Part shown: positions 39,052 through 56,700 of the stretch, piece by piece
Position numbering within the stretch: position 1 is the first letter of the stretch
Layout: each line of letters opens with the position of its first letter
DNA from: Aciduliprofundum sp. MAR08-339
GTDB lineage: Archaea > Thermoplasmatota > Thermoplasmata > Thermoplasmatales > Aciduliprofundaceae
DNA length: 64,000 bases
Assembly (NCBI RefSeq): GCF_000327505.1
Contig: NC_019942.1
Location: forward strand, 1,178,001-1,242,000
Direction: 5' to 3'
The notes under the pieces: model-generated
Told to the model about the DNA's origin: nothing
The model's input: only the letters and a program-made list of their open reading frames with translations
The model's database searches: none
Made by a program: the position numbers and the translations under genes

Positions 39052-39167
39052 TTCTATCACCTTTTTTAGGCATGGGGAAATTGCAGCAATAGATATAAAG
39101 ATTTCTTGTACCGAAAATGAATTTTTCAAAATTCGTAAAATGAATAACGATAACTGTAAATAAATAG

Positions 39168-39240: not shown

Positions 39241-39254
39241 ACGCGCTGCTCGCT

Positions 39255-39300: not shown

Positions 39301-39522
39301 GGCGATTGGTAAATGGGAAATGGGTATTAAAATCTTACGTTCCCCCTCCCGTACTCCCGGCCAGAGGTGGGAATAATTAAATCATAGATTACGAACACAA
39401 AGGCAAGAAGAGAAACATGAAAAATGATCCACTCATCTTGACTCCACCTTCACAATGTATAAATGATCTTCCGCAAAACTTTGAACAATATTTAAATCCG
39501 ATACTCAATTTTACCATTGAAA

Positions 39523-41490
39523 ATGAGAGTTAGAAATTTAACTTTGTTCCTTATTCCGGTAATTCTCGCCATAATATTCTCTCTCATAGTGGGGGTGAGA
39601 AACCCTGCAATCATACTCGCCTTCTTCATAATATTTGACGCGGTGAGTTCGGTAATCTCCTCGTTCATATTCATAACCTACTGGCATAAGAGCAAGAAAT
39701 ACAAGGAGCTATTGGTATCTTACTTGAAACCAAGGGGAGGAGTTGAGGGAAAGATAGCCATAGTGATACCTGTCTACAACGAGGATCCCTGGACGGTTGT
39801 GCAAACAGCTGTGGCTGCAAAGATGGCTGCGGAGGGATACGGGGATGTTTACGTTCTTGATGATTCCACAGATGATGAAATAAGAAAAAAACTTGATGAG
39901 TATGCTAAGGAATACGAGTTCATCGTTTTCAGGAGAGGAAGCCGGAAGGGATACAAGGCAGGAGCTGTGAATTCCTGGTTGAGAAAGCACGGGGAGAGTT
40001 ACGATTTCATGATGATTCTTGATGCTGACCAGAGGCCCATGCCAGGGTTTGCAAAGCACATACTTAGCATGTTTGACGATCCAGATGTGGCCTTCGTTCA
40101 GGTACCCCAGTACTATTCAAGATTGGATACCACCATAGCCCTGGCTGCACATTTGCAGCTAATACCATTTCTGAGGGTTGTGATGAGGGCAAGGCATATA
40201 AATCACAGTGCATTCAGCCTGGGAAGTGGCACGGTATTTAGAATCAAGCCCCTGATGGAAGTTGGCGGATTATACGAGAAGACGGTAACGGAGGATATTT
40301 ACACATCCATTCTTCTTCACGAGAAGGGATACAAGAGCAAGTACCTTGACATACCCCTGGTTTGGTATGGAGAGGCGCCCCTGGACCTCAAGGCCTACTG
40401 GATACAGCAGAACAGATGGTCTGCGGGTGGTTTTCAGCTCATACCCAAACTACTGGATGCAAAGCTCTCAACTCGCCAGCTTGTGGATTATATGAACGGT
40501 GTGTTTTACTGGCTTCACGTGGGTCTGCTAACGATGATAGACATAATAGCTCCCGTGCTGTTTCTCATCTTTGGAATATACTTTATGAGTGTTGAGCCAC
40601 TCTACTACCTCGTATTCTATGGGTCAATTTTTGCCTTCACGTTCATATTTTACATACTATCAATGAGGGATTACAAGTACGGATTGAGAGAGTATATGTA
40701 TCACCAGGGAATACAGTTCGTAGCATCTCTTCCCGTGACCATCGCGCTGTTTCAGTGGCTTACCGGTCGCAAAAAATCGTTTAGGGTAACTCCAAAGAAA
40801 AAGAAGATGGGGGATGTTGTAAGGTATCACATATACTTCATGACTGTCATAGTGATGCTCTCCCTGTCAATAGTATTCGGGGTTCTGAAACTCATTTACG
40901 GACAATGGCACATGCTCTATGCATACCTGATCAACATGTTCTGGGCCGTATGGTGGCTGTGGCTCTCAATAAGTGCCTTCTATGTTTCCCTCTCCAGGCC
41001 CGTGCCAAAAAGGGTGAGGGAGAGAGCCAGGCAGACCTACGAGGGCCTAGAAATAACAGTCGTGGATATGCTTGCCTGCGGTATAGAGTTTGAAAAACTT
41101 ATTGGAAGGTATTACGTGACCCTTGCGAATATGTATCCTAAGTATGAGAAGGTTCTAATTGATATAGCCAAGGACTCATTCAGACACGCGAGAATCTACG
41201 AGAAGATTTTGAATCTGGCCAAGGAAAGGTGGGGCAAGAGTATGGAGGAACAGTGCAGCGGTATAAGTTCTTACTTGAAGAATATAGAGGATATGGAAAA
41301 AAGATGTGGGAGAATCCCATTCAAGGAATGCCTCCTTCCGCAGGAGGAGATTTCCATGTACGTGTATGCCCATCTGGTTCTGGAAAGCTGCAGGTTCATA
41401 CCAAAAAAGCTCATGGACGAGGTTGAAGGCATAGCCAGGGAGGAACTTGATCACAACAGGAGGATAAGAGAACTTGCCACAGGAGAATAG
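39523..41490 (+). CDS. Membrane glycosyltransferase (GT2, cellulose-synthase-like) with ferritin-like tail
   Basis: The 655-residue protein has two N-terminal membrane helices, a GT2 catalytic domain with a metal-binding DxD (LDADQRP), TED and the processive QxxRW motif (QQNRW), then about four more membrane helices. From about residue 505 there is a soluble helical domain with E...SFRHARIYEK and E...EELDHNRR, resembling the ExxH metal sites of ferritin-like proteins. It probably makes a polysaccharide; the substrate is unknown. A TTG at 39517 is in frame but the ATG is preferred; TATA ATATTTAAA lies about 30 bases upstream. No partner cellulose genes are adjacent. Confidence 0.8.
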   Translation: MRVRNLTLFLIPVILAIIFSLIVGVRNPAIILAFFIIFDAVSSVISSFIFITYWHKSKKYKELLVSYLKPRGGVEGKIAIVIPVYNEDPWTVVQTAVAAKMAAEGYGDVYVLDDSTDDEIRKKLDEYAKEYEFIVFRRGSRKGYKAGAVNSWLRKHGESYDFMMILDADQRPMPGFAKHILSMFDDPDVAFVQVPQYYSRLDTTIALAAHLQLIPFLRVVMRARHINHSAFSLGSGTVFRIKPLMEVGGLYEKTVTEDIYTSILLHEKGYKSKYLDIPLVWYGEAPLDLKAYWIQQNRWSAGGFQLIPKLLDAKLSTRQLVDYMNGVFYWLHVGLLTMIDIIAPVLFLIFGIYFMSVEPLYYLVFYGSIFAFTFIFYILSMRDYKYGLREYMYHQGIQFVASLPVTIALFQWLTGRKKSFRVTPKKKKMGDVVRYHIYFMTVIVMLSLSIVFGVLKLIYGQWHMLYAYLINMFWAVWWLWLSISAFYVSLSRPVPKRVRERARQTYEGLEITVVDMLACGIEFEKLIGRYYVTLANMYPKYEKVLIDIAKDSFRHARIYEKILNLAKERWGKSMEEQCSGISSYLKNIEDMEKRCGRIPFKECLLPQEEISMYVYAHLVLESCRFIPKKLMDEVEGIAREELDHNRRIRELATGE

Positions 41491-41891
41491 GAAATTTACT
41501 ATGTATATCATGATCGCCAAAAACCTCTATTATGGTTCGTTAATGTTTGGGGTTATGTTTTCCATTATTGAGGGTAGATCTTTCAACAGTGACGATTCTA
41601 CGGGCTCTCAGAGGGTGATTTTGACGCTTCTAATATTTAGGTGAAACATGGAAACTTGTTTCAGGCATATTAATAAAAGTAAAATAAAAATAGTCACATT
41701 TCAATCACTTTCAGGATACGTTATTTGGTGAGGTATCCAGCAATTCTGCAATATTCAGTAGATTTCGATAAAACTGGAAGATGAAATTCATATAACGTTC
41801 TGGGGATATGTGAAGTTTCGCCATAAGGCGAAATTTGGGCGAAGTGAGACGAAGCTGTATGTCCGCTGTTAGGTGACGAACCCATAAATTT
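41491..41891. other. Intergenic region at the left edge of the BREX island
   Basis: This 401-base stretch contains no convincing gene. An open frame of 47 codons (41501-41644) has weak coding signs and no clear start signal. The right part holds the palindromic element listed at 41791-41883. The left part is AT-rich and probably serves as the terminator region of the glycosyltransferase gene and the 3' end of the minus-strand BREX operon. Confidence 0.5.
41791..41883. repeat. Left flanking imperfect palindrome of the BREX island, attC-like
   Basis: An inner hairpin, TTTCGCC-ATAA-GGCGAAA (41816-41833), is enclosed by outer arms that are partly complementary (TAACGTTCTGGGGATATG at 41793-41810 and GTATGTCCGCTGTTA at 41857-41871). 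The right end GTTAGGT fits the attC core form GTTRRRY. A related element lies at 51473-51555 in the same orientation; they share TAACGTTCTG, GAAGTT at the same offset, and AATTTGGG. Confidence 0.6.
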
Positions 41892-43316
41892 TCAACCTCT
41901 TATTTTAATTTCGGGTAAAGTATCATTGAACTCATTATCAATTAGACTTATTTGCTTCTTAATGATTTTTCTCATTTCTATCGCTGGTTTTAAACAAAAT
42001 GTTTCAAACTCTTTTTTATAAATATCTTCAACTTTGTGTATATGCGGGAAAAGCAGTTTTAAATAACCTGTGCTTATTTTCACTATCGCTCTTGTATCTC
42101 TCGTGTCAGCGTTTTTAGGTATATCTAACAAAGAATCTACTACTTTAGCAAAATCAGGTATTGTTCTTAATTTGTGTAATATTTCGGAGAAATATTCTAC
42201 ATTCAATGCATATCCTCTCAACTTTAAATCTTCTCGCATTCTAGGTAATCTCCATCCTTCAATGAAACCATGAAATCTATCTAATAGTGCAGAATCTTGA
42301 AAGAATTTTGGTAAATTAACGAAATATTTGTTATGTAGGGGTTTTCTATCTTTTTTTAATGGGATGTTTCCCAATAACATAAATCCAGCAGAAGAAACTC
42401 CTCTATAGTCTGCTACAGAAAAATTTCCTGATTCTAAATAATTTTTTAAAGCCCCTTGTAATTCACTTGGGTCCGTAAATTTTATAGTTTCGATTTCATC
42501 CAAGACTACAAAATCATAGCGGGTTATTATGCCAGGAGTTGAACGGGCAACATCGTAAAGCAACTTTGCCCTTGAAACAACACCACCACTTATAACCCAA
42601 CCGTATTTACTTAGATTATTAAATGTATAAGATTTGCCAGTTCCTTTGGGAGCAAGTTCTATCATATTCAAGTTTGGTTCAACAAAAACGAGAAGCCGAG
42701 CCAAAAATAATAACTTTTGAGAAAGCGATTCAAACCCATCGGGATTGTATTCCATAGAACGTATCATAAGGTCTATCCATTCTTCTAAAGTAAATTCTTT
42801 TCGCTTCTCCCTGAAATATTTCACATCCACATCATAAGGTTTAAATGGTTTGTAATCCACTATTTCTATTGCTCCTCTTTGTTTTCCTTCAGGCGGAATA
42901 TAAACTAATTTAACGACACCCCAGACTTCCCCTCCTTTTAATTCTGGGAACTTTTTAGCAATATACTGAGGAATCCGACCCTCATTGGGTTTTATACCTA
43001 TATCTGGTATAGAAAATCTCAGTATTCCTGACTTTATATCTGGGTCTACTACAATTCTCGCAAGCAATGTGACCTCTTTTAAATCGTTTAAAAGAGTTCC
43101 TTTTATTTTGCTCTCTTTATGTGCAATATGGGCATTCAAAAAAAGCTTTAGAGCATCAACATCCAAATTTCCATACTCATCTGTAAACTTCCTTAATATC
43201 CAATCCTTGACAAAAGATGGAAGATTATATCCAGAAAATATCCTATATTCTTTTGGACTTTTAAACACGGATTCCTCTGGAAATATTCTCTTTATTTTAT
43301 CATCTAACTCATTCAT
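41892..43316 (-). CDS. brxL: BREX type 4 protein BrxL (AAA+, Lon-like family)
   Basis: The 474-residue protein has a Walker A APKGTGKSY (near residues 222-230) and Walker B VVLDE (about 270-274), in the BrxL form IELAPKGTGKSY followed by SGGVVSRAKLLYD and RYDFVVLDEIE. BrxL proteins are AAA+ complexes of BREX phage defence. The typical type 1 BrxL is about 680 residues with a C-terminal Lon-like protease domain; this chain ends soon after the AAA+ module, so that domain seems absent. It is the last gene of the operon, overlapping pglZ by 4 bases, and is AT-rich. Confidence 0.85.
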   Translation of the reverse strand: MNELDDKIKRIFPEESVFKSPKEYRIFSGYNLPSFVKDWILRKFTDEYGNLDVDALKLFLNAHIAHKESKIKGTLLNDLKEVTLLARIVVDPDIKSGILRFSIPDIGIKPNEGRIPQYIAKKFPELKGGEVWGVVKLVYIPPEGKQRGAIEIVDYKPFKPYDVDVKYFREKRKEFTLEEWIDLMIRSMEYNPDGFESLSQKLLFLARLLVFVEPNLNMIELAPKGTGKSYTFNNLSKYGWVISGGVVSRAKLLYDVARSTPGIITRYDFVVLDEIETIKFTDPSELQGALKNYLESGNFSVADYRGVSSAGFMLLGNIPLKKDRKPLHNKYFVNLPKFFQDSALLDRFHGFIEGWRLPRMREDLKLRGYALNVEYFSEILHKLRTIPDFAKVVDSLLDIPKNADTRDTRAIVKISTGYLKLLFPHIHKVEDIYKKEFETFCLKPAIEMRKIIKKQISLIDNEFNDTLPEIKIRG

Positions 43317-45700
43317 AGTAGATCCCTCTCCTTAAATCCTCCTATAATAGTTACCTTTATTTGGTAGTCCTTATCTCCTATTTTCAATACTATCGTGTGT
43401 TCTCCAACTTTTAAGCCTCTTAGATCTATCTTATAGATATCATCCTCTTTCTCGTAAGACACATTCAATGATCGCTCATTGAGAAAAGCTTCAGGAATAT
43501 ACAAAGGCTGTGGGTATATTTTAAATTGAACTACAGGATTAGTTATCCAGACCTCAGAATTAATAAGTTCAATTTCATATTCAGTTTTGTCTTTTTCAGT
43601 TTCTATTACAATATAAGGTACTAAAACTTCTTCAGGAGTGGCCCCTCCATGAACCTCTCTATAAGGAGTATTATTTAATGAAACATGTTTCAATGCAACA
43701 AGGACCTTTCTACCCCGGCAATTCCCCTCATCAATGTTCCACACAATAAAATATTCGTCCTCTTTGTAATTTACCTCGTCGATCCACATACATCTTCCCT
43801 CATGTTCAGTGTTTGGCAAATCGAGTCTTTTAAAATTACCAAAATCCTTCAAACACAAAAAACTGAATCCGTGATCTGAAAGGATGCCAATTTTTTCATA
43901 TTGCATCTCAATAATTTCTTTTATTATTTTTTCTACGAGTTCAAATTCTTTGATTAGATCATCTGGATATTTATATGGATTTTGATTATGGATGTGCTTA
44001 TCTAAATTTCCAACTTTTTCAAATTCGTATCTATTGCATTCTGTAATGCTTGGCAAATTTACCCGCGTAAGTAACTTATTTTTTACGATTTTTCCTTTTT
44101 CTTTTCCATATTTATTGAGCAGATGAACTACTAATGAAAACCATTCCGCTCCTAACCCATCTATCCACACATATTTAATCTCCTCTTCTATTTTTGCTTT
44201 AGGCAAAGAATAATACCAATCTGAAAAAGTAGACTTATTTCTGTTTTTGTTATTAATTAGTTCTTCTATTTTTAGAGATTTACTATGCCTTATTTTTGAA
44301 TAATTGTACTCTTTAAAATATTCAAGTATCCAATTATCCACTTCGTTATCGGGCTTTATTAACTCCCAATCTAAATAGTAAGCCAATTCTGGATAAACAT
44401 CTTTTAAGTTAGGAAGAAGTCTTTGAATTTCTTGGATATCAACATTTTTTAGTTCAGAAATTAGGTATTTCCTCTCAGTAAATGTTATGTTGGTTAAATA
44501 TTCGAGCTTTTTCTTCAACGGGTAGCTTTTTATATTATCAAGTTCATTATAAAGTTTCTCTTCTACAAATCGAGCTGAGAAGTTGAGATTCTTATGTATG
44601 TAGTTTAAAAATTCCTTTCTCTCGGAAAAAACATCCTTAGTTGGTGTTTCAGAAGGTAGCTGAAATATCTCCAACCATAGTTTTTCTATTAAATCCTCCT
44701 CTTTTAATTCTTCCAGTCTTTCGAAACATTTGTGTAAATAGGAAGACTTAAACTTATCTAAAGCTAAGAAGAGGTTTCTGATTAACCATCTTTCATAATA
44801 ATCATTAGTTTTCAAATAGCAATCGAGAAATTCTTTAGGTGTTAATTTTTCTATACTTCTAAAATTAAAATGTCTTAAAAATATACCTTCTATGGTTAAT
44901 CCTTTTCTATTGTATCTGCCTACCTCCTTTATGAGTTCGTTCCAAAACTCTATTTCGTCATCTTTAAACTTTACCGGAACTTTGATTTCAAAAATCTCTT
45001 CAAGAAATTCTTTTTGATTTGAAATCCCCTTTAACTCGAATGCTTGATCTGGGAGAAAATTTTTATAAAAATATGACAAGGATTGGGACAGGGATAGGAT
45101 ACCTTTCACATTCTCTCTTTTCCAAACACTTAACCATTCTTCAGTAGTAGATACTAATACAAAGTTTTCTAAGAGAAGATTCTTATAATCTAAATCAAAA
45201 TTTATTTGATATATAATTGTTTTTTGAGAAGATGTTTCTAACTTCCAAACTGATGCCCATTCTTCCTTTCTGTAAAAGTTAGTCCAGAACTCTTGTTCAA
45301 ATCTCTCCCACAAACCAACTAAGGGTATATAGATTCTTATATTGTTTTGCTTTTCAATTTCAGTTAGGCTTTTTAAAGTTATATAAAAATCTTCTTTACT
45401 TTGAAATCTCAGAAATTCTGATAGTGGAACCACAACAGCATTGTTAGATATTTCCCTTATCCAATTTACTATTTCATCTGTTGTTAGCCATCTATTTTTA
45501 TCAGATAGGAGTTCCGTTATTTCTCTACTTTCAACATTACAATTTTTAACTAGAAATCTAATAATTTCTCGTAATTCTTCGAAAGAATTAAGGAAGATTA
45601 ACCTTACCGGAAATCTTCTGTCAGAGGGCATTTTAGAATTCTTATCCTGCTTTATTCGAGCATACAATTCTTTAAGAGAATGAAAATCTTCTACTCCCAT
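43313..45700 (-). CDS. pglZ: BREX type 4 PglZ-domain phosphatase-like protein
   Basis: The 795-residue protein contains the alkaline-phosphatase-like PglZ domain in its C-terminal half: the WIDGLGAEWF segment with the catalytic-site Asp, ILSDHGFSFL with Asp-His metal ligands, and NTEHEGRCMW. The N-terminal half is a long helical region of unknown role. PglZ is the hallmark of BREX and of the older Pgl systems. It overlaps both neighbours (1 base with brxC, 4 with brxL). Confidence 0.88.
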   Translation of the reverse strand: MGVEDFHSLKELYARIKQDKNSKMPSDRRFPVRLIFLNSFEELREIIRFLVKNCNVESREITELLSDKNRWLTTDEIVNWIREISNNAVVVPLSEFLRFQSKEDFYITLKSLTEIEKQNNIRIYIPLVGLWERFEQEFWTNFYRKEEWASVWKLETSSQKTIIYQINFDLDYKNLLLENFVLVSTTEEWLSVWKRENVKGILSLSQSLSYFYKNFLPDQAFELKGISNQKEFLEEIFEIKVPVKFKDDEIEFWNELIKEVGRYNRKGLTIEGIFLRHFNFRSIEKLTPKEFLDCYLKTNDYYERWLIRNLFLALDKFKSSYLHKCFERLEELKEEDLIEKLWLEIFQLPSETPTKDVFSERKEFLNYIHKNLNFSARFVEEKLYNELDNIKSYPLKKKLEYLTNITFTERKYLISELKNVDIQEIQRLLPNLKDVYPELAYYLDWELIKPDNEVDNWILEYFKEYNYSKIRHSKSLKIEELINNKNRNKSTFSDWYYSLPKAKIEEEIKYVWIDGLGAEWFSLVVHLLNKYGKEKGKIVKNKLLTRVNLPSITECNRYEFEKVGNLDKHIHNQNPYKYPDDLIKEFELVEKIIKEIIEMQYEKIGILSDHGFSFLCLKDFGNFKRLDLPNTEHEGRCMWIDEVNYKEDEYFIVWNIDEGNCRGRKVLVALKHVSLNNTPYREVHGGATPEEVLVPYIVIETEKDKTEYEIELINSEVWITNPVVQFKIYPQPLYIPEAFLNERSLNVSYEKEDDIYKIDLRGLKVGEHTIVLKIGDKDYQIKVTIIGGFKERDLL

Positions 45701-48700
45701 CAGGATCCCTCCAGATATTTTTCAATTGTCTCTATAATCTCAGGATGTTCATCTATCAGTTTAATTAAAATTTCTTTGAGCCTCTCTGCAGAATAGCTCT
45801 CTATTTGTTGTTTAATATTTTTCACCTTTTCTTCAGATATGGGATGCGAATGGAATTTATAGTGTTGAGAAGTGGTTATCCCATCGTCCCGCTTAGAGTA
45901 TTCCAATTCATCAATCTGTTTTTTAAGCTTCTCTCTATCCCAATCTTTAACTTTCTCTCTAACTTTATCTTCTGTCCAAGAAGCAACTTCTTCCTGCATA
46001 TTTCTTTTAATGTAGCCTATAACCTCTCCTATATCCTCAGATGAAATTTCAACTCCTTCAATACATTTCAACCACTTTTTAAACAACTCCCCCGGATTTT
46101 CTCGGTCTATTAAAATGTCAAGATCATACTTTACGTCCTCTATAGTATTTAGGTAATCCTTTATCTTTTCATACGTAAGATCTCTATCAATTGATTGAAC
46201 GAGTTCAAAAATAGTATCTATAGCTTTCTTAGTATTTTCATTTATATTCTCTGCGAATTTGAATACCCATATAGGAAATCCTTGTTTTTTAACCCATTCT
46301 CTTATTTTCCATCTTGCATCATTCAAACTTCTAACGTCTTTAAGTTTAAATAAATCTTTCAAAATCTCAATAAGTTCTTCTTCATCTTCTGTCCCAAAAC
46401 GAACCTCCAACTTCTCTCCATGCGTTCCTTTTTCCCAGTAATCAAACAAAGTCAATATTTTATCTCTCATTACCTCTTTTTGAATTGGTATTCCTGTTCC
46501 TTCCTCAAAAAGTTTACCAATATATTCTCTCATTAAAAAGCCAATTGCTGCCATATTAATCATATTGGGGTATAATCCATATGGTGGTTTGGTGAGGAAT
46601 CTTAGAGCATCTCCTAGATTAAATACTCCGCTATCTCTTTCTTTTTCAAAGACTTTTCGTATTTCTAAATACATCTTTTTTAGAGGGTGATTTTCAAAAA
46701 CATCATCTTTTATTTTTAGATTTATATCTACGATGTATTCCCCATTGTTGTCTTTAATGATCTCCCGTAAATATCTTTCCGGACCTTTAGATGTCTTTTC
46801 TTCTATATCCTTTCTGTTATTAGCGAATAAAAATATTTCAGCAGAAGTTTTAGATCGTTTGTATGTCCAAATGTTTCTGTTCTTTTGAGTCCCATCTATA
46901 TTTTCTAAACCATAGGAAAATATCTTTCTGGATAATTCTTCGTTTATCTTTCTGCTAAACTGACTCATTAATTCTTTACCGCTTTCATTCTGCAAGAACC
47001 ACTCAATATATCCAGATTTTACTTGATTCATCCAGTTATCAATAATCTTTCTTGCATATTCCTCGTTTATATTTCTCTCTTCTGGATAATTATGTTTGTC
47101 TGCAACTATTGCCCTTGCTTTGTATTCTATGAATCTATTAAATGTTTTGTCGTCTAAGGTTGCTTCAGATACAACAAAAATTATATTTCTGAGATCATCA
47201 TTAGAGATCTCCTTCAATATGTTTTTTATTTGTTGTAATTCTTGTTCACTTTTTCCTAAAAACAAACATAAGTGAATTGTATAATCTTTTTGGAAGGCTT
47301 TTTCTATTTTTCTTCTTATTAAATGTTCATTTAAACTAGCATCCATTATCATGAACTCGACAACTCTATTTACGGAAGCGCTAATAGTATCTTGTAGTTC
47401 TTTTTCTTGCTTCCTATTGAGTATTCTATCAATTGTATTATATTCACTTTTTATCTTATTCTTTTCGGTTTCAACTTCTCTTGAAGGTAACCCTGAACTT
47501 GTAATTAAGTATAAGTTATCTGGTGTTTTATTGATTATTTGCTTGTCATCAATGAATGATAGAATGCTGGTTAAATACTTCCGGTCAATAGCGCCAGCAA
47601 AAAGATTTATTATATTCTTCTCCGAAGGAACTACAAGAGAAGATTCTCCAACTTCTACAAATCTGTAAAGAAAGTTTAGAAGAAGTGCACCTTTAAACAC
47701 AGACAAATATTCATCACCTTTCTCCTCCAAAATGCTCTTATGAAGTTTAAATTTTTCCAACACAGAATAAACTTTTTCACTTCCCATCCTTTCAAATTCT
47801 TCATAGAAAAAGTCCCAAAGATAATCCACTGTTAAAAATATCCTTCCTTTCTCTCCTGGATTTTCCTTTATGAATTTCTTGAAACCACTTCTTTCATCAT
47901 ACAAAAAATTGAAAATGCTCCTTTCTGTAGAACCTATATTTCTTGCTATAAAAGTTGCTAAATATGCAGTATAAGGATGGATTGGGAAAAGACTCTCTAA
48001 GGATTTTTGAACTTGTGTTCCTTCACTTCCGGTAATTTCCTCTATTAAAGATTTGACTGAATCCATATATTTATCTTTAATCTCTGTAAATTTGTCCATA
48101 TCTTTTTTCTTAATAGCAGCGTTGATAATGTGGTAAGTGGTTATAGGCTCCATTGAATAATCCAATACTTTAAATCTTCCAAGAACTTTCTCTACATCAT
48201 CTCTTGAAATATTTGTCTGGTAGGGTTTTCTATGGGCGACAACAAACAAATAAACACCTTTATTGATAGATAGTTCTGCTATATTCTGCAATTCTGTCAA
48301 TAATAGACCAGATTTAGGCAGTTCCAAAATTCCAGTGAATTCATCCCAATAAATTACTAAATAATCCGCAATTTCTTTATTTTTTAGTTCATTTTGTACT
48401 TCTACCAACCAGTTTGCAATATTTTCAGTAGAGAAGTGAATACCCTTTTGTGAAAGTATGTTCTCTATTTTTCTTAATATGGTTATATCTCCCTGTTGAA
48501 GCTTAGAAATTATATCCTCTTTGGTCCCATAAATCTCTAACTCTGTTCCTTTAAAAATTTTTTCCCAATTTATCTCATCACTTTTTAATTTTTTAATCAT
48601 TTTATCAAAATCAGTTTTTGTATTGAGTTCAATACCTTCTTTCTTTAAGGCATTCTTTACTGCTTTTTCAAGTACCAATGCAAAGGTTCTATTATCAATA

Positions 48701-49062
48701 ATAGAGGATGTCCCTTTTAAAACAACTGGAAAAGCCCTCTTATTTTTACGGAAATTTTTTATTTTAAACTTTATTTGTTCTTCCAGATTTTCAATGAAAT
48801 CGTTTATCTCATCAAGATCATCAAAAAGAATGTGCTTTACTACAGCGGTTGCGTGGCTTTTTCCGGTGCCATAAGCTCCCTGAAGCCATATTGATTTTCT
48901 TTCTTCAGGTTTGCTACTTTCAAGCGAGTTTATTGTTTCTGATAGCACTTTATAAAATTTTTCGTTAGGGATAAATTGCTTCCAGTATGTTCCAATTTCA
49001 TTTTCTAAATCATAAACAGGTTGAAAGTAATCATTTAACCCTATAATTTCCTCATACCTCAT
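45700..49062 (-). CDS. brxC: BREX type 4 large ATPase BrxC/PglY
   Basis: The 1120-residue protein has a Walker A LQGAYGTGKSHA (residues 60-71) and a Walker B LVIYWDEF (about 235-242). Long helical, Lys/Glu-rich C-terminal parts are typical of BrxC/PglY, the largest ATPase of BREX, which is needed for both modification and defence in type 1. The start at 49062 overlaps the brxP stop by 4 bases. The coding sequence is distinctly AT-rich. Confidence 0.87.
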   Translation of the reverse strand: MRYEEIIGLNDYFQPVYDLENEIGTYWKQFIPNEKFYKVLSETINSLESSKPEERKSIWLQGAYGTGKSHATAVVKHILFDDLDEINDFIENLEEQIKFKIKNFRKNKRAFPVVLKGTSSIIDNRTFALVLEKAVKNALKKEGIELNTKTDFDKMIKKLKSDEINWEKIFKGTELEIYGTKEDIISKLQQGDITILRKIENILSQKGIHFSTENIANWLVEVQNELKNKEIADYLVIYWDEFTGILELPKSGLLLTELQNIAELSINKGVYLFVVAHRKPYQTNISRDDVEKVLGRFKVLDYSMEPITTYHIINAAIKKKDMDKFTEIKDKYMDSVKSLIEEITGSEGTQVQKSLESLFPIHPYTAYLATFIARNIGSTERSIFNFLYDERSGFKKFIKENPGEKGRIFLTVDYLWDFFYEEFERMGSEKVYSVLEKFKLHKSILEEKGDEYLSVFKGALLLNFLYRFVEVGESSLVVPSEKNIINLFAGAIDRKYLTSILSFIDDKQIINKTPDNLYLITSSGLPSREVETEKNKIKSEYNTIDRILNRKQEKELQDTISASVNRVVEFMIMDASLNEHLIRRKIEKAFQKDYTIHLCLFLGKSEQELQQIKNILKEISNDDLRNIIFVVSEATLDDKTFNRFIEYKARAIVADKHNYPEERNINEEYARKIIDNWMNQVKSGYIEWFLQNESGKELMSQFSRKINEELSRKIFSYGLENIDGTQKNRNIWTYKRSKTSAEIFLFANNRKDIEEKTSKGPERYLREIIKDNNGEYIVDINLKIKDDVFENHPLKKMYLEIRKVFEKERDSGVFNLGDALRFLTKPPYGLYPNMINMAAIGFLMREYIGKLFEEGTGIPIQKEVMRDKILTLFDYWEKGTHGEKLEVRFGTEDEEELIEILKDLFKLKDVRSLNDARWKIREWVKKQGFPIWVFKFAENINENTKKAIDTIFELVQSIDRDLTYEKIKDYLNTIEDVKYDLDILIDRENPGELFKKWLKCIEGVEISSEDIGEVIGYIKRNMQEEVASWTEDKVREKVKDWDREKLKKQIDELEYSKRDDGITTSQHYKFHSHPISEEKVKNIKQQIESYSAERLKEILIKLIDEHPEIIETIEKYLEGS

Positions 49063-51434
49063 TTTAATCTCACCTCCGCAATTTTTACTATATCCAAAGA
49101 TGTAAGGTCTTCTCTTAGGTAAATGTTATCCAAGTCAGCTACTAAGTCAACTCTTAAAATCTCTTCTTTATCTTCTTGAAGTCCTCTTAAAATTCTTTCT
49201 AATTTGTCTTTTGAAATTCCAAATAATTTATATGGTCCGCCTTTGAATTCTTTCGTATATAATTCAGATACTGTAAAATCTCTCCTTCCAATATGTTCTG
49301 CTGCTTTATAAAGGCTGTACGCAACTGCCAATGGATGAACATCATCTGTGCCAATTTTTTTAATAGATTTTACAACTCTCCCCTTTTTATCTAAGAGGCC
49401 AATTTTTAGTTCCAATCCCAAGGGAGAATTGTCAAACATATTAACCATAGCATCTATTGGATTACTTAGTGTACCTCTGCTTAGGTTGGGATAAGCCAAA
49501 CTAATTTTTTCTTTCAAATCTTTTTTAGTAATTATTGATCCCCAACTAATTTGTTCATTATACCATCTAATTACTTGGGAGTTGTAATACATATTGTTCC
49601 AAATTATTTCCCATACAAACAAACTATCTTTAGTATATATTTTTCTCAGATACTTGCTTAGGGGTGTGGTTCTTTTGCTTTTAGGATATATTAACTCTGC
49701 ATCAATAAGCCAATGAAGCACTGCGGGTATTTGTTTGGGACCTAAGTTATTTTCTTCTAACCATTCTTCCCCAAAATTAAAAAATGCATTTAACCACTCT
49801 TCTCTAAGACCAAAGGTAGAATATTTATCTATTCCCCCTGTTCTTTTTTTCATAGACACACCTCCAATATTTTCATGTACAGATTTGGCCACCAAGCATC
49901 CTTTTTCAACAAAATTAATACAGTTTCCACAATGAGTACATAAACCACTATTTATTTTAACTTTTGGTATCACATTCAAAGCACCTGTGGGGCATTCTAT
50001 TTCACAAGCGCCACAATGGATGCAAAAGGCAGTTTTATATGAGACTTTCTTAACCTTACTAATTAAATCAATATTTGATCCCACATCATAAAAAGTTATT
50101 GATGTTTTATTCTTTTTTATATTTAATTCAAAGGGAATCACGGAATTTTTAATCTTCAATTCTCCATAAATATTTCCTGCTGGACCCTTCTTGTACATTA
50201 CTTCTCCTATAGTTTTACTCCACTCCAAAAAATCTTCCTTTGGATTCAACATAATGGATTTAATAGAACTATGATCGGTAATAAATCTTACATCTGAGTC
50301 TTTGTTGAGTCCCCTCCCTCCAGATCTCTTTTTCCACTCACCATTAGAAATATACCTGTTTATTTGTCCTTCTTCTTTTAACCCCATGGATTCAGCATAT
50401 TTCTTTAATAAACTAAAATATCCCCCGATATCTTCTTCCAACTTACCCAAGACAAATTCCGTCCATTCAGATGAAAAGGGACATACTGAACATCCTACTC
50501 TGGATAAACCCGTTCGATATCCTCGATTCAATAAAAGATTTCTGAAAAAAAGATATAGGAATATCTCTGATGTATTCCAATAGAGTACGGGCCTTGCATT
50601 TACTGTCATAAGGTGTTTGACATTTTTTGCTATCCTGCTATAGTGTGATCTTTTCTCACTCTCTTCGGTTCTCACCCCTTCAAAAACTATGATTTTGAAT
50701 TTATCATTTTTAGTATTTATAAACTCATCTTTTATAAGTTTGTGGAACGGTGCCGTCTTGATTACTGTGCAACACCACCTGTGAATTCTGCTTGGTGGAC
50801 CAAAATCACTCCAAAACTCTATCGCTGGTTTAGGTGGTTTTGCAGTATAAAATTTCAATCCAGGATATCGTTTTTCGTATTCTTTTTTAGTTTTTTCTAC
50901 ATTCTCATAGGTATATGAAATTTCCATAGTAGTATCTGAAAATATAACTACTAAATCATCTGGAGGTATAATTCTTGTTACAAGGTCTAACACCACCTGT
51001 GAATCTTTTCCTCCACTATAAGCTACAGCAAATAAGAATCTTTTCCTTTTATAGACTTTATATGTATGCTCTATAAAATCCAAAGCTTCATTCTCTAGAA
51101 CAAATAAAGATTCTTTATTTTTTTCAATCACCTTAGTAACATCTATTGGTTCCAACTTGAAATTTTGTCCTTTTTCGGTGAGTACTATTTCAGGAGGTTC
51201 AAATATGTTGCCTCCTTTAGCCTCGGCTACAAGCACTCCTTTATAGTAATATCTTCTTCCAATCGCCCAGAGCAGAGGCTCTTGAACTTTAGGATAGTCC
51301 CAAAATTTATTAAAACCTAATAGATCCAACTCTTCAAAGAATACTGGACGAGGGGGAGTTATTGTCTGATCTCTCCTATTACTGTTTGTTAATATGATTC
51401 CATTATTAGTTGAATCCCATATTACCTTATACAT
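49059..51434 (-). CDS. brxP: BREX type 4 PAPS-reductase-like protein BrxP with Fe-S clusters
   Basis: The 791-residue protein has a PP-loop ATP-pyrophosphatase motif SGGKDS (residues 140-145) of the PAPS-reductase/DndC family, cysteines in RWCCTVIKTAP and VGCSVCPFSS that could hold a cluster as in DndC, and a ferredoxin-like pair (CIHCGACEIECPTG and CTHCGNCINF). It takes the place of the methyltransferase of other BREX types and may act on DNA sulfur chemistry; that is inference. A GAGGTG element (complement of 51443-51448) lies 8 bases before the ATG. Confidence 0.87.
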   Translation of the reverse strand: MYKVIWDSTNNGIILTNSNRRDQTITPPRPVFFEELDLLGFNKFWDYPKVQEPLLWAIGRRYYYKGVLVAEAKGGNIFEPPEIVLTEKGQNFKLEPIDVTKVIEKNKESLFVLENEALDFIEHTYKVYKRKRFLFAVAYSGGKDSQVVLDLVTRIIPPDDLVVIFSDTTMEISYTYENVEKTKKEYEKRYPGLKFYTAKPPKPAIEFWSDFGPPSRIHRWCCTVIKTAPFHKLIKDEFINTKNDKFKIIVFEGVRTEESEKRSHYSRIAKNVKHLMTVNARPVLYWNTSEIFLYLFFRNLLLNRGYRTGLSRVGCSVCPFSSEWTEFVLGKLEEDIGGYFSLLKKYAESMGLKEEGQINRYISNGEWKKRSGGRGLNKDSDVRFITDHSSIKSIMLNPKEDFLEWSKTIGEVMYKKGPAGNIYGELKIKNSVIPFELNIKKNKTSITFYDVGSNIDLISKVKKVSYKTAFCIHCGACEIECPTGALNVIPKVKINSGLCTHCGNCINFVEKGCLVAKSVHENIGGVSMKKRTGGIDKYSTFGLREEWLNAFFNFGEEWLEENNLGPKQIPAVLHWLIDAELIYPKSKRTTPLSKYLRKIYTKDSLFVWEIIWNNMYYNSQVIRWYNEQISWGSIITKKDLKEKISLAYPNLSRGTLSNPIDAMVNMFDNSPLGLELKIGLLDKKGRVVKSIKKIGTDDVHPLAVAYSLYKAAEHIGRRDFTVSELYTKEFKGGPYKLFGISKDKLERILRGLQEDKEEILRVDLVADLDNIYLREDLTSLDIVKIAEVRLK

Positions 51435-51472
51435 TTATTCTGCACCTCAAGTAATTTTTGATCCGAGTGAGA

Positions 51473-51555
51473 GTTTGTCGCCTAACGTTCTGCGGCTAAG
51501 CGAAGTTGCACGATAGGGCAATTTGGGAGGACGTTTAGCCACGGAAACTCCAAAT
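51473..51555. repeat. Right flanking palindrome of the BREX island, attC-like
   Basis: It begins GTTTGTCGCCTAACG, containing GCCTAAC, which fits the attC form RYYYAAC. The arms TTCTGCGGCTAA (51489-51500) and TTAGCCACGGAA (51535-51546) pair in 11 of 12 positions, with one G-T and one mismatch. An inner TTGC/GCAA pair lies between. It is related to the element at 41791-41883 and lies just upstream of brxP. Confidence 0.6.
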
Positions 51556-51679
51556 ATACGAAATTCATAGAACCTCACCACACCAGAGTTATTCAGAAGT
51601 TTTATCGCACTACAACGCATTAATGAAGATATTAACCTATAAGATAAAAACCTTGCTCCGAAGAATCCATTAATGATAT

Positions 51680-52030
51680 TCACACTTCGAACTCGACCTC
51701 ATCCCTGGAAATTTCCCTTATTTCCCTGCTATCTATTACCTCAAAATATCTTACCGGCTTGTTTAACGACTCTGCAAGTTCTATTTCTCTCTGCACTCCA
51801 TCGCTTATGGGTCCAAATACCCAGAGCTCATCACACCTCTTCACAAGATTGTTGTTGGCGTTTCTCACCATGTCCCTATCCACGGTATCAAGCAGGAAAT
51901 AATCAAAGAGCATGAAGGGATTTAAAGGCACGCAGTTGTGCTCAAGCACAAACCTAGAAATGTGTTGCCTGAAATAAAATGTGTGCTTTGACATGGCCGT
52001 GAATACAAGTTTCATATCCTCTGTTTCCAT
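51680..52030 (-). CDS. Small nucleoside-2-deoxyribosyltransferase-like protein
   Basis: The 116-residue product has a short beta strand (MKLVFTAMS), a helix, FDYFLLDT, a second strand DELWVFGPISDGVQREIELA, and VRYFEVID, which fits the flavodoxin-like fold of the NDT-like/DUF7768 group. The Asp and Glu in DELWVF and the GV.REIE helix are the expected substrate side. A TATA-like TATTTAAAA lies about 24 bases before the ATG at 52030 (leaderless). The role is unknown. Confidence 0.55.
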   Translation of the reverse strand: METEDMKLVFTAMSKHTFYFRQHISRFVLEHNCVPLNPFMLFDYFLLDTVDRDMVRNANNNLVKRCDELWVFGPISDGVQREIELAESLNKPVRYFEVIDSREIREISRDEVEFEV

Positions 52031-52163
52031 ATTACTGGTAGTCTTTGGAATTTTAAATAGTTATTTCCCTCCACTATAATTTTTCGGAAACTTTGTTTAT
52101 CAAATAAATATATAAAGTAATAATAAAACTCCGCACTCCTAGAAAAACCTGAAAAATACTGAA

Positions 52164-52202
52164 TTTTTGATCAATTTACAGCTGATCGAAAATTATATAA
52201 AT
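52164..52202 (+). promoter_or_regulatory. Inverted repeat directly upstream of a TATA box
   Basis: TTTTTGATCA (52164-52173) and TGATCGAAAA (52183-52192) are inverted repeats with one mismatch. TTATATAAAT (52193-52202) follows at once and is a strong TATA box; a start of transcription near 52225 would then precede the GGAAGGAG at 52226-52233. The repeat could bind an activator or repressor of the zinc-ribbon gene. Confidence 0.55.
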
Positions 52203-52242
52203 CTAGGCTTTCACTTATCCATTTCGGAAGGAGATGATCAAA

Positions 52243-52686
52243 ATGCTGTTTGTAGAATGCCCGTACTGTCATAGAGATATGTGTTTCAATTGGGATGACA
52301 TAGAGGAATACTGTCAGGATGGTACCCTCGCCACGTATATATTCACCGAGAAGGAAGTAACATTGATATGCCCCCATTGCGGAGGGGAGATCAGGTTCAT
52401 AGGCAAAGGAAGGGATGTTCTACTGGATAAGGAGGCGGAAGCCATTGCCCTAGAAAGGTTTATGAGGTTTGAAATACGGGGAGCTTACGCCTTACAGGTT
52501 GAGAATAGAGATGGAGAGATCACAGCATTCCCTACAGAGGATATGGTGGCCATAAGCTTTGTGTATGGGGAATTTGGTAACTTGGATGATTTGCCTGCTG
52601 AGTGGTTAGACGAAGTACAAAAAAATGGAGCAAACATCATAGTTATTAATCACGGGGACAGAAATCTTACATTATACTATATGTAA
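52243..52686 (+). CDS. Zinc-ribbon protein of unknown function
   Basis: The 147-residue protein has CPYC near its start (residues 6-9) and CPHC (about residues 45-48), which would form one zinc ribbon. The rest (LDKEAEAIALERFMRFEIR and VAISFVYGEFGNLDDL) is acidic and unfamiliar. An upstream in-frame ATG at 52234 abuts the Shine-Dalgarno, so the ATG at 52243 is preferred. It lies alone next to repetitive DNA. Confidence 0.6.
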   Translation: MLFVECPYCHRDMCFNWDDIEEYCQDGTLATYIFTEKEVTLICPHCGGEIRFIGKGRDVLLDKEAEAIALERFMRFEIRGAYALQVENRDGEITAFPTEDMVAISFVYGEFGNLDDLPAEWLDEVQKNGANIIVINHGDRNLTLYYM

Positions 52687-52884
52687 AAGTTATTTAGAGA
52701 TACTTAATGTTTGAAGTTTGGAAGTTTAGAAAAAGTTGAGAAAATTTGAAATGACCCGGAAATTTTTCACGCTACTTCTTGGGTAGTGTCATCATGAGAA
52801 AACGGGGGTTTTCTCATGTATATATACATGAGAATGCACGTGTTTTTCCTATAGGAAATCATGGAAATATGGGAGTAATATGTG

Positions 52885-53039
52885 GTTTAGACCTAAACTT
52901 TTTCTAAACTTTTCTAAACCATCTCAAAAACCTGTAAAATACTACTTCCAACCAATTTCTAAACTTTTTCTAAACCTTTCTAAACTTTCCTAAACTTTTC
53001 TAAACCGCTCTAAACTTTCGTGTAATACTACTTCCAACC
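52885..53039. repeat. Phased CTAAAC repeat array
   Basis: CTAAAC occurs at 52893, 52904, 52914, 52959, 52970, 52980, 52990, 53000 and 53010. The last six are spaced 11, 10, 10, 10 and 10 bases, about one helical turn each. The two groups are related by a 66-base shift, and TACTACTTCCAACC recurs at 52940-52953 and 53026-53039. This pattern is expected of protein-binding iterons or intrinsically curved DNA. No replication initiator gene is nearby. Confidence 0.75.
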
Positions 53040-53261
53040 GCTCTCAACCCGCTGATTTTTGAGGGAATTTTTATATATTATCCAGCCACGATAAAATTCC
53101 ATGTTTCTCTGAGTTTTACCCATGTTTTGGAAAAAACTGGAAATAAAAACAATGCATTGAAAAATAAGTAAAATACACAAAATATTTTAACTTCAAAGCA
53201 ATTTCAAATTCTCGGTTATTTCATAACTCAGAATTCGAGAAATACAGAAAAAATAAGGCAT

Positions 53262-53301
53262 TTTTGGAAAATCTTCCAAAACCTTTTCCAATTTTGGAAA
53301 A
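53262..53301. repeat. Two adjacent inverted repeats
   Basis: TTTTGGAA-AATC-TTCCAAAA (53262-53281) and TTTTCCAA-TT-TTGGAAAA (53284-53301) have 8-base arms and stand 2 bases apart. They contain the same 8-base word in opposite order, so alternative pairing across both is possible. They lie 25 bases after the stop of the broken permease gene and may terminate transcription or bind a regulator. Confidence 0.7.
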
Positions 53302-53325
53302 ATTTAAAAATAAAAAAGAAAAAGT

Positions 53326-53484
53326 TTAATTTTCAGCATACTCTCCCAGAATATAGTATTTAAAGTCCTTCTCTGGAGTCTTCCTGAGGGTAGAATACAT
53401 TATTATATAGAAAATCAAACCCATCACTAGGAATATTATGAATATAGCACATTCATATGGCCATACTAAGTATCCCGGAGACAT
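53326..53484 (-). pseudogene. C-terminal remnant of an APC-type permease
   Basis: The minus frame ending at 53326 encodes about 52 residues from an ATG at 53484 (MSPGYLVWPYECAIFII and a Lys-rich tail KYYILGEY). One hydrophobic helix and the tail look like the C-terminus of amino-acid/polyamine permeases. Everything upstream is replaced by the truncated gene on the other strand. A genuine small membrane protein is possible but less likely. Confidence 0.45.
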
Positions 53485-53674
53485 GGGTAACAATAGTGCC
53501 AAGAGGAAAATTATAGGTGTAATTACTGCAGTGATAATAGTGGTTGCAGCCATCGCAGGTGTTTGGATGATAGCACAGCCCAGCAAAGAGAAACCCGGTC
53601 AGCCGGGTGGAGGTGAAGGTGGTGGAGGTCCTCCAGTAACACCTGAGGCGCTATATGTTGCAGGTACCTGGTAG
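53483..53674 (+). pseudogene. N-terminal remnant of an exported (binding-protein-like) gene
   Basis: The frame from the ATG at 53483 encodes 63 residues: a basic start, a membrane anchor (IIGVITAVIIVVAAIAGVWMI) and a Gly/Pro-rich linker (GGGEGGGGPP), as at the start of archaeal solute-binding proteins. It then runs into the decayed carboxyltransferase fragment at about 53661 and stops at 53674. The mature domain is missing. Confidence 0.5.
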
Positions 53675-53773
53675 CTCAGAACCTTTGTATCTGCAATGCG
53701 CATCTCCATTCTTGTATATTTTCCAAGCTTTTACTCAACCTTTCTGAAGTATTGTGAAATTTTTTCCAGCTGG
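53661..53773 (-). pseudogene. Decayed internal fragment of a pyruvate/oxaloacetate carboxyltransferase gene
   Basis: Translated on the minus strand, about 36 residues align with the carboxyltransferase at 20956-22383 (around residue 290): LEKISQYFRKVE, a stop codon, then KYTRMEMRIADTKVL. I count 28 of 36 identical positions. The in-frame TAA (plus-strand TTA at 53731-53733) and the truncation on both sides show that it is not functional. It differs enough from the 21-kb copy to be an old paralogue rather than a recent duplication. Confidence 0.8.
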
Positions 53774-53787
53774 GCAATCACCTTGAT

Positions 53788-56700
53788 TTATGGCATGTTT
53801 TTAGGTATTTTTAGAACAAACACACTTCCACGTGGTTCGTTGTTTTTTATCTCCACACTTCCACCATGGAGCTCCATTATCATCCTTACTATGGACAGAC
53901 CCAAACCTGAACCTTCGCCCGAATGAAGTCTTTTAAATGGTTCAAATATAAGTTCCTTCTTACTGTCCGGTATGCCTGGGCCATCATCTGCAAAATGGAT
54001 AAGAACGTAATTTTCATTCTCCGCAGTATAAATTTTAACCTCGCTAGCCCCATATTTGAAGGCATTGTCAAGTATGTTAACAAATGCCTCTTTCAGCAGG
54101 GTGAATCCTTTCATATTCAGATATCCAACTTTGTTGATTATTTTTGCATCTGGATACTTCTTCCTTATCAAGGCTATGCTTTTATCCAGCATCTCAGAGA
54201 TATTTGCACTATCTTTTTTCAGGTCCGTTCCATTTATGCCCAGTTTTGAGAACAGTCGGGCCTTGTTTATTATGCCATTTGCCTCTTCAAGGGCATCCGC
54301 CATGGTGTCAAGGAACTCATGTGAGGACTCCTCTTTGATAAGTTCCAGGTATCCCTGAATAACGGCCAGAGGATTTTTCAGATCATGGCTAACAATGTGG
54401 ATAAGGAGTTCCTGGAACTCTTTGGCTCTTTCAAGGTTTCTCTGGTATTCCAGACTTGCGAGTGAAACACCAAGGTGTGAGGCAATTAGATCTATTAACT
54501 TCCGGTCATCCTCAGATATGCCATCAACTTTATCACTTTCCACGTTTAAAACCCCAAAAATTCTGTTTTCATACATTATTGGTGTTGCATACTCACTCTT
54601 TGTATGTGGATTTGCATTGAAGTACCACGGATCCCTTGAGACGTCCGGCGCATAGTATGGTTTTTTATTTCTTACCACCCATCCAACAATGCCACGATTC
54701 ACTATTTTTATACCCTCAAGGTCCACTGCTCCCCCCATGCCACCATACCTGCGAATCACAGCACCATCGCCCTGCATCTCCGTGATAACCACATCTTTAA
54801 TTCCCAGCACATTTGTGATGGCATCAATAACCATGGTGAAAAGTTCATCCTCTTTTCTGGCCATTTTCATACTCTCAAACATGCTGACCATTGCCAGAAG
54901 TTTATCCTCCATTTCTTTAAGGGCCGTGATATCCTGAGCACTCATCATGTCAACCTTCTTTCCTTCCCACTCCACTATGGTCCCTCTAACCATACACCAT
55001 TTCGGATTTCCCTTGGAATCTATGAGTTTTGCCACATAAGTATCTGGAATATTCTCTCCCGCCATACGTCTATTGTAATTACTCCATAGAATATCACGCA
55101 TATCTGGATGCACTATTTTTAGAAAGTTCTTGTTCAAAAGATCCTCCTCTGAGTAACCGAGCATATCCTTCATCGTTTTATTTACAAATATGATCTTGCC
55201 ATCATGAAGAATTGCTATGCCCACCAGCACGTTCTCCAATGCAGTTCTGTACTTTTCCCACTCTTCCCGGAGTTTGTTCATCAATTTATTTCTCTCAGTG
55301 ATATCTATTGCCACCCCTATCGCACCCTTCACATTACCTTTCCCATCTCTGAGAGGTGATGCATTTACCAAGATATCCACGGTTGCTCCATCTTTTCTGA
55401 TTATGCGTGCTTCATAAACCTCGCTAAGTCCACGCTTTATATTTTTGTGTTTCTCAATAAAAACATCTCTGCTATCTTCGGATAGAAAATCAAATACCTG
55501 TCTCCCGAGCATCTCTTCAGGTTCATAACCGGCCATTCTGGCAAGTCTGCTATTGACAAATGTTAGCCTGTAATCCTCATCAGTTATACCTACTCCAGCA
55601 AGGGATGTGTTTATCAATGTCTCGTATCTCTCCTTTGTCTCTTTTATATTTTTGAAAAGATTTGCGTTTTCAATGAATATGGCGAGGAAGTTGGCAATTA
55701 TCTCCATGTACTTCAAATCCTCCTCGGTGTAAATGTTGGGTGCAGGTGTAGATACTACGAGCAGTCCCAGAACCCTGTCCCGATAAATTATCGGAACGAA
55801 CATTGCGGATTTTTCCATCTCTTTGGATCCAACAACCATGTACTCCTCAGGAGAGAACTCCTTGGATAAATCCCTTATAAGCAGTGGCTTCTTTGTGTAT
55901 ATAACACGTCCTGCAAGAGAGTGCTCAGGATCAAATTTGATACTTATCTCTGTCATATCCTCAGTATCTGAGCGTCCATAGGGATAGTAAATCTCACCCA
56001 TCTCCTCCTTGTATATGCCAAAGAGAAAAGATTTGAAATTCATTACCTTTTTAAGTTCCTCGTATATGCACTCTCCCATGTACCTCAAATCTGGAAAACC
56101 ACCCATTTTAAGAGATATGTTGTAAAGAGCTGATAGAAGATTGCTTCTGCGCATCAGTTCCTGCTCATGCACTTTTTTATCAGTGATATCGTATTTCAAG
56201 GAAACCATGTATTCAACCTCACCGCTTTCGCCTGTAACGGGTACTATGGTCATTTCCTCAGTGTACAGTTCTCCATTCTTCTTCCTGTTCACAATCACCC
56301 CGTGCCAGATGTTTCCCTGCGCCACTCTCTCACATATATCCCTATAAAACTTTTTGTCATAGAGTCCGCTGTTCAAAAATTCAGGGGTTCTTCCAATAAC
56401 CTCCTCAGGCCTGTATCCAGTTATTCGGGTAAACGCGGGATTCACATAAAGTATTCTCCCGCTTTTATCCGTAACCATGACCATTTCAAGTATATTACCT
56501 ATAGAACTTGATAGTAGTTTCAGAGCAACTTCCATTCTCTTTTGAGACTCATCCCAGATATGAAGTACTATGTTATCCTCAACCGCAAGCGCCTCCACAG
56601 TGCAACCCCTGGCATTTTTCGAGAGGTTAAGGTTTACGCTTAAGAGGCCATTGCTATCTGAAAGAGAGGATATCCTATCTCTAAGAATCTTCCGGGAACG

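What the first reader, a model, noticed from the sequence alone, without database searches (positions are those of the whole stretch)
41892..51434. A complete four-gene type 4 BREX phage-defence operon in an archaeon
Four minus-strand genes with 1-4 base overlaps encode a PAPS-reductase-like BrxP, a large BrxC/PglY ATPase, PglZ and BrxL, the gene set defined for BREX type 4. No methyltransferase gene is present. Type 4 is the least studied form, and its modification chemistry is unclear. A thermophilic archaeal example would be useful for structure work.
Basis: partly seen in the sequence, partly recalled or inferred. Interest (0 to 1): 0.82.

Follow-up and report, generated by a model that had tools for sequence, protein, structure and literature searches.

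The report
BREX-4 defence operon in integron-like cassette
The four-gene antiviral operon is real and of a known type (BREX type 4), but it sits in a 9.7-kilobase mobile cassette with integron-type recombination sites, and nearly the same cassette, cut at the same base pairs, sits beside a related recombinase in an archaeon of another lineage.

Summary
Window 41892-51434 (-) holds brxP-brxC-pglZ-brxL with 4, 1 and 4 bp overlaps. Each protein matches a BREX-4 family model end to end. As a BREX-4 system it is an ordinary new member.

The new result is the context. The operon is exactly one 9,690-bp cassette (41796-51485). An attC-type hairpin follows the brxL stop codon by about 16 bp. A remnant of a divergent tyrosine-recombinase gene with an attI-like site lies on the brxP side. 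A second cassette, 85% identical, sits in an Archaeoglobi genome bin next to a related (44% identical) but interrupted recombinase gene. The homology between the two starts and stops at the predicted G|TT crossover points, and the flanks share nothing.

The family of the host genome carries more such cassettes. Most with an identifiable function look like defence: a Shango/BrxD-BrxHI-like operon, NurA-HerA-SMC-like genes, TIR-NTPase, McrBC. The recombinase is XerA-like and lacks the IntI-specific insertion, so this works like an integron but fails one defining test. BrxP also shows two hypervariable blocks, which are candidate target-recognition segments. Excision and phosphorothioation were not tested.

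The parts
49059..51434 (-). brxP: PAPS-reductase-like protein with PP-loop SGGKDSQ, 4Fe-4S ferredoxin-like region and SspB/DUF4007-like C-terminus
   Evidence: PADLOC PDLC02510 993 bits; PAPS_reduct PF01507 2.8e-25; PP-loop and cysteine motifs invariant in 36 homologues; AlphaFold2 pLDDT 88.8 with PDB fold matches to PAPS reductases and SspB 6lb9/6juf
45700..49062 (-). brxC/pglY ATPase (Walker A GAYGTGKSHA, related to SspC)
   Evidence: PADLOC PDLC02472 2138 bits over residues 1-1118; SspC model E 9.5e-27
43313..45700 (-). pglZ, type 4
   Evidence: NF033445 BREX_PglZ_4 673 bits; D514, D609, H610, H684 conserved in archaeal and bacterial homologues
41892..43316 (-). brxL, short form: N-terminal and AAA+ domains, no Lon-like C-terminal protease
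   Evidence: PF20442 + PF13337; PDLC02505 782 bits over 473 of 474 aa
41796..51485 (-). complete cassette (9,690 bp) from TT after G51486 to G41796; holds brxP-brxC-pglZ-brxL only
   Evidence: 85.0% blastn block to L040 starts at G51486/L040 G5606 and ends at GTTA, window 41793/L040 15333; no flank similarity
41788..41876 (-). attC-type site (R''-L''-L'-R'), crossover G41796|T41795
   Evidence: model R1 69.9 bits, but this site is in the training set; covariation; independent twin in L040 at 71.1 bits
51478..51552 (-). degenerate attC-type site between the attI-like site and the cassette, crossover G51486|T51485
   Evidence: R1 27.9 bits, E 3.5e-4; 47-bp direct repeat with the 41793 site, 79%
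51548..51580 (-). attI-like site (imperfect palindrome CTATGAATTTCGTATATTTGGAG|TT)
   Evidence: conserved upstream of the recombinase gene in G000 (617k, 533k) and, as GATTATGCG-AATT-CGCATAATCTAAAG|TT, in relatives
51581..51671 (+). remnant of the 5' part of the 272-aa tyrosine recombinase gene; intact copy at genome C1:617888-618703
   Evidence: BLAST to L115, L116 and L112 copies; intact gene

Best explanation
What it is: a complete BREX type 4 operon carried as one very large gene cassette of an integron-like element. How it moves (inferred from anatomy): a XerA-type tyrosine recombinase encoded beside an attI-like site joins attI to the attC hairpin of a circular cassette at G|TT, placing the cassette just upstream of, and divergent from, the recombinase gene. 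In the window the recombinase gene has since decayed, freezing the BREX cassette in place; the same genome keeps an intact copy at another such locus. How it defends (inferred from family knowledge): BrxP, with its SspB-like DNA-binding/nicking part, Fe-S cluster and PP-loop, and BrxC mark host DNA with phosphorothioate at a short motif, and PglZ and BrxL with BrxC block unmarked invading DNA. Shown here: gene set, domain anatomy, cassette boundaries, attC structure, exact sharing between lineages. Not shown: recombination, phosphorothioation, virus defence.
For: BREX-4 identity. BrxP folds like PAPS reductases and SspB. Cassette: blastn of window 38001-54000 against L040 gives one 9,771-column block at 85.0% identity whose ends sit at the G|TT points on both sides; 400-bp flanks align no better than shuffled sequence. 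L040 carries a recombinase gene directly upstream and an independent attC hit (71.1 bits, E 3e-16) just after its brxL stop. attC-type hairpins show 6 pairs with changes on both sides, covariation reached by 0 of 500 shuffles and lost on sliding. Cassette starts match the complement of their own R'' boxes: L040 14/15, window 12/15, McrBC cassette 15/15, Shango-like cassette 14/15; 65 of 96 against a permuted mean of 44.6, 6 of 20,000 permutations as high; for G004 and G008 the matching attC was found by the model, not by seeking the complement. The recombinase and attI-like site are conserved in relatives with a different gene set inserted at the same point in each. R1 hits occur in 8 of 13 same-family genomes and in none of 8 order-level genomes.
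Against: The recombinase lacks the IntI-specific insertion (about 42 aa shorter between boxes than IntI4 2a3v) and falls below the integron-integrase cut-off (196 against 265 bits), so its ability to use attC hairpins is untested. In the window the recombinase is a remnant, and in L040 it carries an in-frame stop. The site between attI and the BREX cassette is degenerate, with no clear R''. L040 is from a metagenome bin and could be mis-binned, although 18 of 40 genomes around it (including its own) carry R1 sites. Part of the start/R'' evidence is circular, because four cassettes were found by seeking the complement. The phosphorothioate role rests on homology and on papers about other hosts.
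Confidence: 0.82

Rival explanations
1. The operon is an ordinary BREX-4 defence island inserted by an unrelated route (transposon, homologous recombination between dispersed repeats). The hairpins are MITE-like repeats, not recombination sites.
For: The hairpins occur in several copies in the genome; the recombinase at this locus is only a remnant; most other BREX-4 loci (e.g. L010, L027) show no such site at their ends.
Against: Dispersed repeats do not predict that each inserted segment begins with the complement of its own end, that two lineages share one segment cut at identical G|TT points, or that stems are kept by paired changes.
Confidence: 0.08
2. The cassettes are true integron cassettes but are moved by a canonical IntI elsewhere (in another host or element). 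The neighbouring XerA-type recombinase does something else, such as dimer resolution.
For: The recombinase lacks the IntI insertion that PMC9668308 cites as necessary for integron-mediated recombination.
Against: The genome has a separate XerA-like recombinase (36% identical, C1:326750); this recombinase is tied to the attI-like site across the family; a 42-45% identical recombinase also stands beside the L040 cassette.
Confidence: 0.15
3. Function only: the operon is intact but acts without phosphorothioation (for example BrxP is a sensor), so type 4 in this host is a non-modifying defence.
For: No cysteine desulfurase gene in the operon (it is present in only 56% of type-4 taxa, PMC12839542); stability of phosphorothioate under this host's conditions is unknown.
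Against: PP-loop and cysteine motifs are invariant; PF00266 aminotransferases that could supply sulfur exist in the genome; type 4 is described as a phosphorothioate-synthesis family (PMC11931770, PMC12839542).
Confidence: 0.1

Closest known systems
BREX type 4 (brxPCZL), e.g. Methanosphaera sp. ISO3-F5 plasmid pNP174
   Same: Same four genes in the same order; BrxP 53%, BrxC 41%, PglZ 38%, BrxL 63% identical; same short BrxL.
   Different: The window operon is bounded by attC/attI-type sites; no such site was found in the 19-kb pNP174 stretch.
Archaeal integrons (PMC9668308)
   Same: attC hairpins with R and L boxes, attI next to a tyrosine recombinase, cassettes starting at G|TT.
   Different: That survey found integrons only in metagenome-assembled genomes, used IntI and/or at least two attCs less than 4 kb apart as criteria, and its text does not mention Aciduliprofundum, Thermoplasmatota or Archaeoglobi. 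Here the recombinase is XerA-like and cassettes are 1-10 kb operons, which those criteria would tend to miss.
Bacterial chromosomal integrons that carry anti-phage cassettes (e.g. in Vibrio; my own knowledge)
   Same: A recombination platform that stocks defence genes.
   Different: From general knowledge, bacterial cassettes are usually about 1 kb with one gene. A library search for integron cassettes together with BREX turned up no title or abstract reporting a whole BREX operon as a cassette; the papers themselves were not read.
Ssp phosphorothioate system (SspBCD)
   Same: BrxC resembles SspC, the BrxP core resembles SspD, and the BrxP C-terminus folds like SspB.
   Different: BrxP fuses the SspD- and SspB-like parts, and PglZ and BrxL are present in place of SspE/SspFGH.

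Membership tests
BREX type 4 | PglZ of the type-4 family | tested here: met
   NF033445 673 bits, cut-off 140; PDLC02542 1407 bits
BREX type 4 | BrxC/PglY ATPase | tested here: met
   PDLC02472 2138 bits, full length
BREX type 4 | BrxP PAPS-reductase in place of a methyltransferase | tested here: met
   PDLC02510 993 bits, PF01507
BREX type 4 | DUF4007/SspB-like component | tested here: met
   Pfam DUF4007 does not hit the window protein but hits its 53% identical homologue weakly (E 0.0014); PDLC02511 on residues 536-785; PDB fold match to SspB
BREX type 4 | BrxL | tested here: met
   TIGR02688 493 bits, cut-off 329
BREX type 4 | phosphorothioate in host DNA; phage restriction | not testable with these tools
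   needs host DNA and infection assays
Integron | attC sites: R''/L''/L'/R' hairpin, G|TT crossover | tested here: met
Integron | cassette 5' end complementary to the R'' of its own attC | tested here: met
   (partly selected sites)
Integron | attI site beside a divergent integrase gene | tested here: met
   (several genomes); in the window the integrase is only a 5' remnant
Integron | IntI integrase with the IntI-specific additional domain | tested here: not met
   insertion absent; TIGR02249 196 bits below cut-off 265
Integron | demonstrated attI x attC recombination | not testable with these tools
   needs a recombination assay

The most novel reading that the evidence does not exclude
Archaea use a distinct class of integron, run by a XerA-type recombinase without the IntI domain, that trades whole multi-gene defence operons (BREX-4, McrBC, Shango-like, TIR-NTPase) as single cassettes between distant lineages.
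Probability: 0.6. Interest if true: 0.88.

Novelty: new variant of a known kind. Interest (0 to 1): 0.76.

Why it matters
It gives a concrete, testable mechanism for how BREX and other large defence operons spread between distant lineages. It suggests that integrons may be commoner in Archaea than surveys keyed to IntI and short cassettes report. It also offers a natural minimal recombinase for asking whether the IntI-specific domain is really required for attC recombination. Nearly identical BREX-4 operons with swapped BrxP segments point to where phosphorothioate sequence specificity may be encoded.

Tried and rejected
Rfam scan of three array loci: no match, so no ready-made attC family. 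Viral-contig scan with BrxC: none. A first hand-made attC scanner was too strict and found only 3 sites; replaced by covariance model R1. DNA folding of the two flanking hairpins alone was not significant against shuffles, so the case rests on comparison, not folding energy. Considered MITEs or dispersed repeats: rejected because of cassette-start complementarity and shared exact ends. Considered tRNA-Gln (39167-39240) as the integration site: rejected, because it lies 2.5 kb away with a host gene between it and the island. Flanks of L010 and L027 (close relatives in BrxC, PglZ and BrxL) show no attC-type site, so not every close BREX-4 is a cassette. R1 hits at about 30 bits in Caldisericum and G407 are suggestive only.

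Full report
Observation. The window holds four minus-strand genes at 41892-51434 with overlaps of 4, 1 and 4 bp. All four match BREX type-4 models over their whole length. The stretch is 31% G+C in a 40-47% neighbourhood. No other genome among 30 relatives has the type-4 PglZ, and none of 389 other genomes drawn from the phylum has the BrxC at E <= 1e-60. It was therefore acquired by this lineage.

BREX-4 anatomy. BrxP has a PAPS-reductase core with PP-loop SGGKDSQ, two ferredoxin-like cysteine groups, and a C-terminal part that resembles DUF4007/SspB. The PP-loop and the cysteines are invariant in 36 homologues. An AlphaFold2 model (pLDDT 88.8) matches PAPS/APS reductases and the SspB crystal structures 6lb9 and 6juf. 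BrxC has Walker A GAYGTGKSHA and resembles SspC. PglZ keeps its D/H motifs. BrxL is the short form without a protease domain. The same operon is on Methanosphaera plasmid pNP174, annotated as BREX-4, and a genome scan finds 264 stretches that encode relatives of BrxP, the best 80 kept. PMC12839542 describes type 4 as phosphorothioate-based in 457 taxa including 20 archaea, with DUF4007 often fused to the reductase and BrxL in 96%. PMC11931770 counts brxPCZL among phosphorothioate-synthesis gene families. As a BREX-4 system this is an ordinary new member.

The cassette. A 47-bp direct repeat flanks the operon (41793 and 51483, 79%). Beside the brxP end lies the 5' remnant of a tyrosine recombinase gene whose intact copy is elsewhere in the genome. 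That recombinase (272 aa) is 80-84% conserved in several genomes of the family. It is distinct from a second, XerA-like recombinase in the genome and carries the R-K-HxxR-H-Y residues. Upstream of it stands a conserved palindrome ending in AAAG|TT or a close variant, followed by different genes in each genome. Reading away from the recombinase, hairpins of the form R''-L''-...-L'-R' close the gene sets. Seven such sites align, and the stems keep pairing through changes on both sides (6 pairs; covariation 0.253 against 0.112, 0 of 500 shuffles; lost on sliding).

Independent confirmation. A covariance model built from those seven sites finds, outside its training set, a 71-bit site in L040, an Archaeoglobi archaeon bin, directly after its brxL. 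In L040 the BREX-4 operon sits between a recombinase gene (42-45% identical to the one here, with an in-frame stop) and that site. Blastn gives one block at 85.0% identity from window G51486 = L040 G5606 to the GTTA at window 41793 = L040 15333. The flanks have no detectable similarity. The cassette starts GTTAGGCGACAAAC, and the complements of the closing R'' regions read GTTAGGTGACGAAC (window) and GTTAGGCGACGAAC (L040). Over eight cassettes the starts match their own ends at 65 of 96 positions against 44.6 when permuted, 6 of 20,000 permutations as high. Four of those cassettes were found by seeking the complement, so this test is partly circular. For G004 and G008 the matching attC lay on another contig and was found by the model first.

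Cargo. Other cassettes in this family are: a four-gene operon with BrxD/SngB-like and BrxHI/SngC-like proteins (5.1 kb, C1 1096.3-1101.4k); NurA, HerA, an SMC-like ATPase and a 296-aa protein (5.9 kb, 611.5-617.5k); a TIR-NTPase protein (2.7 kb) and McrBC (about 3 kb) in G010; and an unknown 302-aa protein in G002. R1 sites occur in 8 of 13 same-family genomes and in 18 of 40 genomes around L040, including its own. One of these, G441, has five sites in one direction over 8 kb, with cargo that reads by eye as a methyltransferase and a DUF262-like protein.

Is it an integron? It works like one: attI, attC, G|TT crossover, cassette-own ends, recombinase divergent from the array. It fails one defining feature. 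The recombinase has no IntI-specific insertion (16 residues where IntI4 has 58) and scores below the integron-integrase cut-off. I therefore call it integron-like with a XerA-type integrase. PMC9668308 used IntI and/or at least two attCs less than 4 kb apart, and found archaeal integrons only in metagenome-assembled genomes. Cassettes of 5-10 kb with this recombinase would tend to escape that rule. A library search gave no paper on integrons in this genus.

BrxP mosaic. Among six close operons, BrxP residues 41-200 and 721-760 are mostly 75-95% identical to the window protein, and BrxC, PglZ and BrxL are mostly 80-95% (window against L040 and L010). BrxP residues about 230-480 fall to 25-60% in most comparisons. 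Residues 521-680, inside the SspB-like part, are 28-50% in four operons but 65-82% in L040. Such blocks in an otherwise near-constant operon suggest exchanged target-recognition segments. This is inference.

What is shown and what is inferred. Shown by sequence: gene set, motifs, cassette limits, hairpin covariation, exact sharing between two lineages, recurring defence-like cargo. Inferred: that the XerA-type recombinase is the driver, that cassettes circularise, that the system makes phosphorothioate and blocks viruses, and that the BrxP blocks set the motif.

Noticed in passing
window 39167-39240 (-): tRNA-Gln(CTG) has no intron here, while three congeners and the genome's other tRNA-Gln copy (C1:583675-583864) show a 40-50 nt insertion at the canonical 37/38 position (split BLAST hits).
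   Followed up: no
window 52714-53312: About 600-bp AT-rich element with CTAAACTTTTTCTAAACC repeats; 80-83% copies at C1 1102433, 818691 and 453097; it lies about 1.1 kb from a recombinase remnant both here and at 1101.4k.
   Followed up: partly
window 49059-51434; L040, L010, L025, L027, L011: BrxP is mosaic: two hypervariable blocks (about 230-480 and 521-680) in otherwise near-identical operons, candidate sequence-specificity segments.
   Followed up: partly
genome C1:1096282-1101388 (L165): A second multi-gene defence-like cassette (BrxD/SngB-like ATPases, BrxHI/SngC-like helicase) in the same genome with its own attC-type site.
   Followed up: partly
L218 (G441:C2:186000-200000): Array of five R1-type attC sites in one direction, with cargo that reads by eye as a DNA methyltransferase, a DUF262-like protein and a GHKL-type ATPase, in a genome related to the Archaeoglobi bin.
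   Followed up: partly
L020, L195, L196 (Caldisericum bin): Weaker attC-type hits (about 30 bits), one 2.4 kb from its own BREX-4 locus in the opposite orientation.
   Followed up: no
window 51680-52030 (-) and 52234-52686 (+): A DUF7768 protein and a small zinc-ribbon-like protein flank the recombinase remnant; neither matches a defence family.
   Followed up: no
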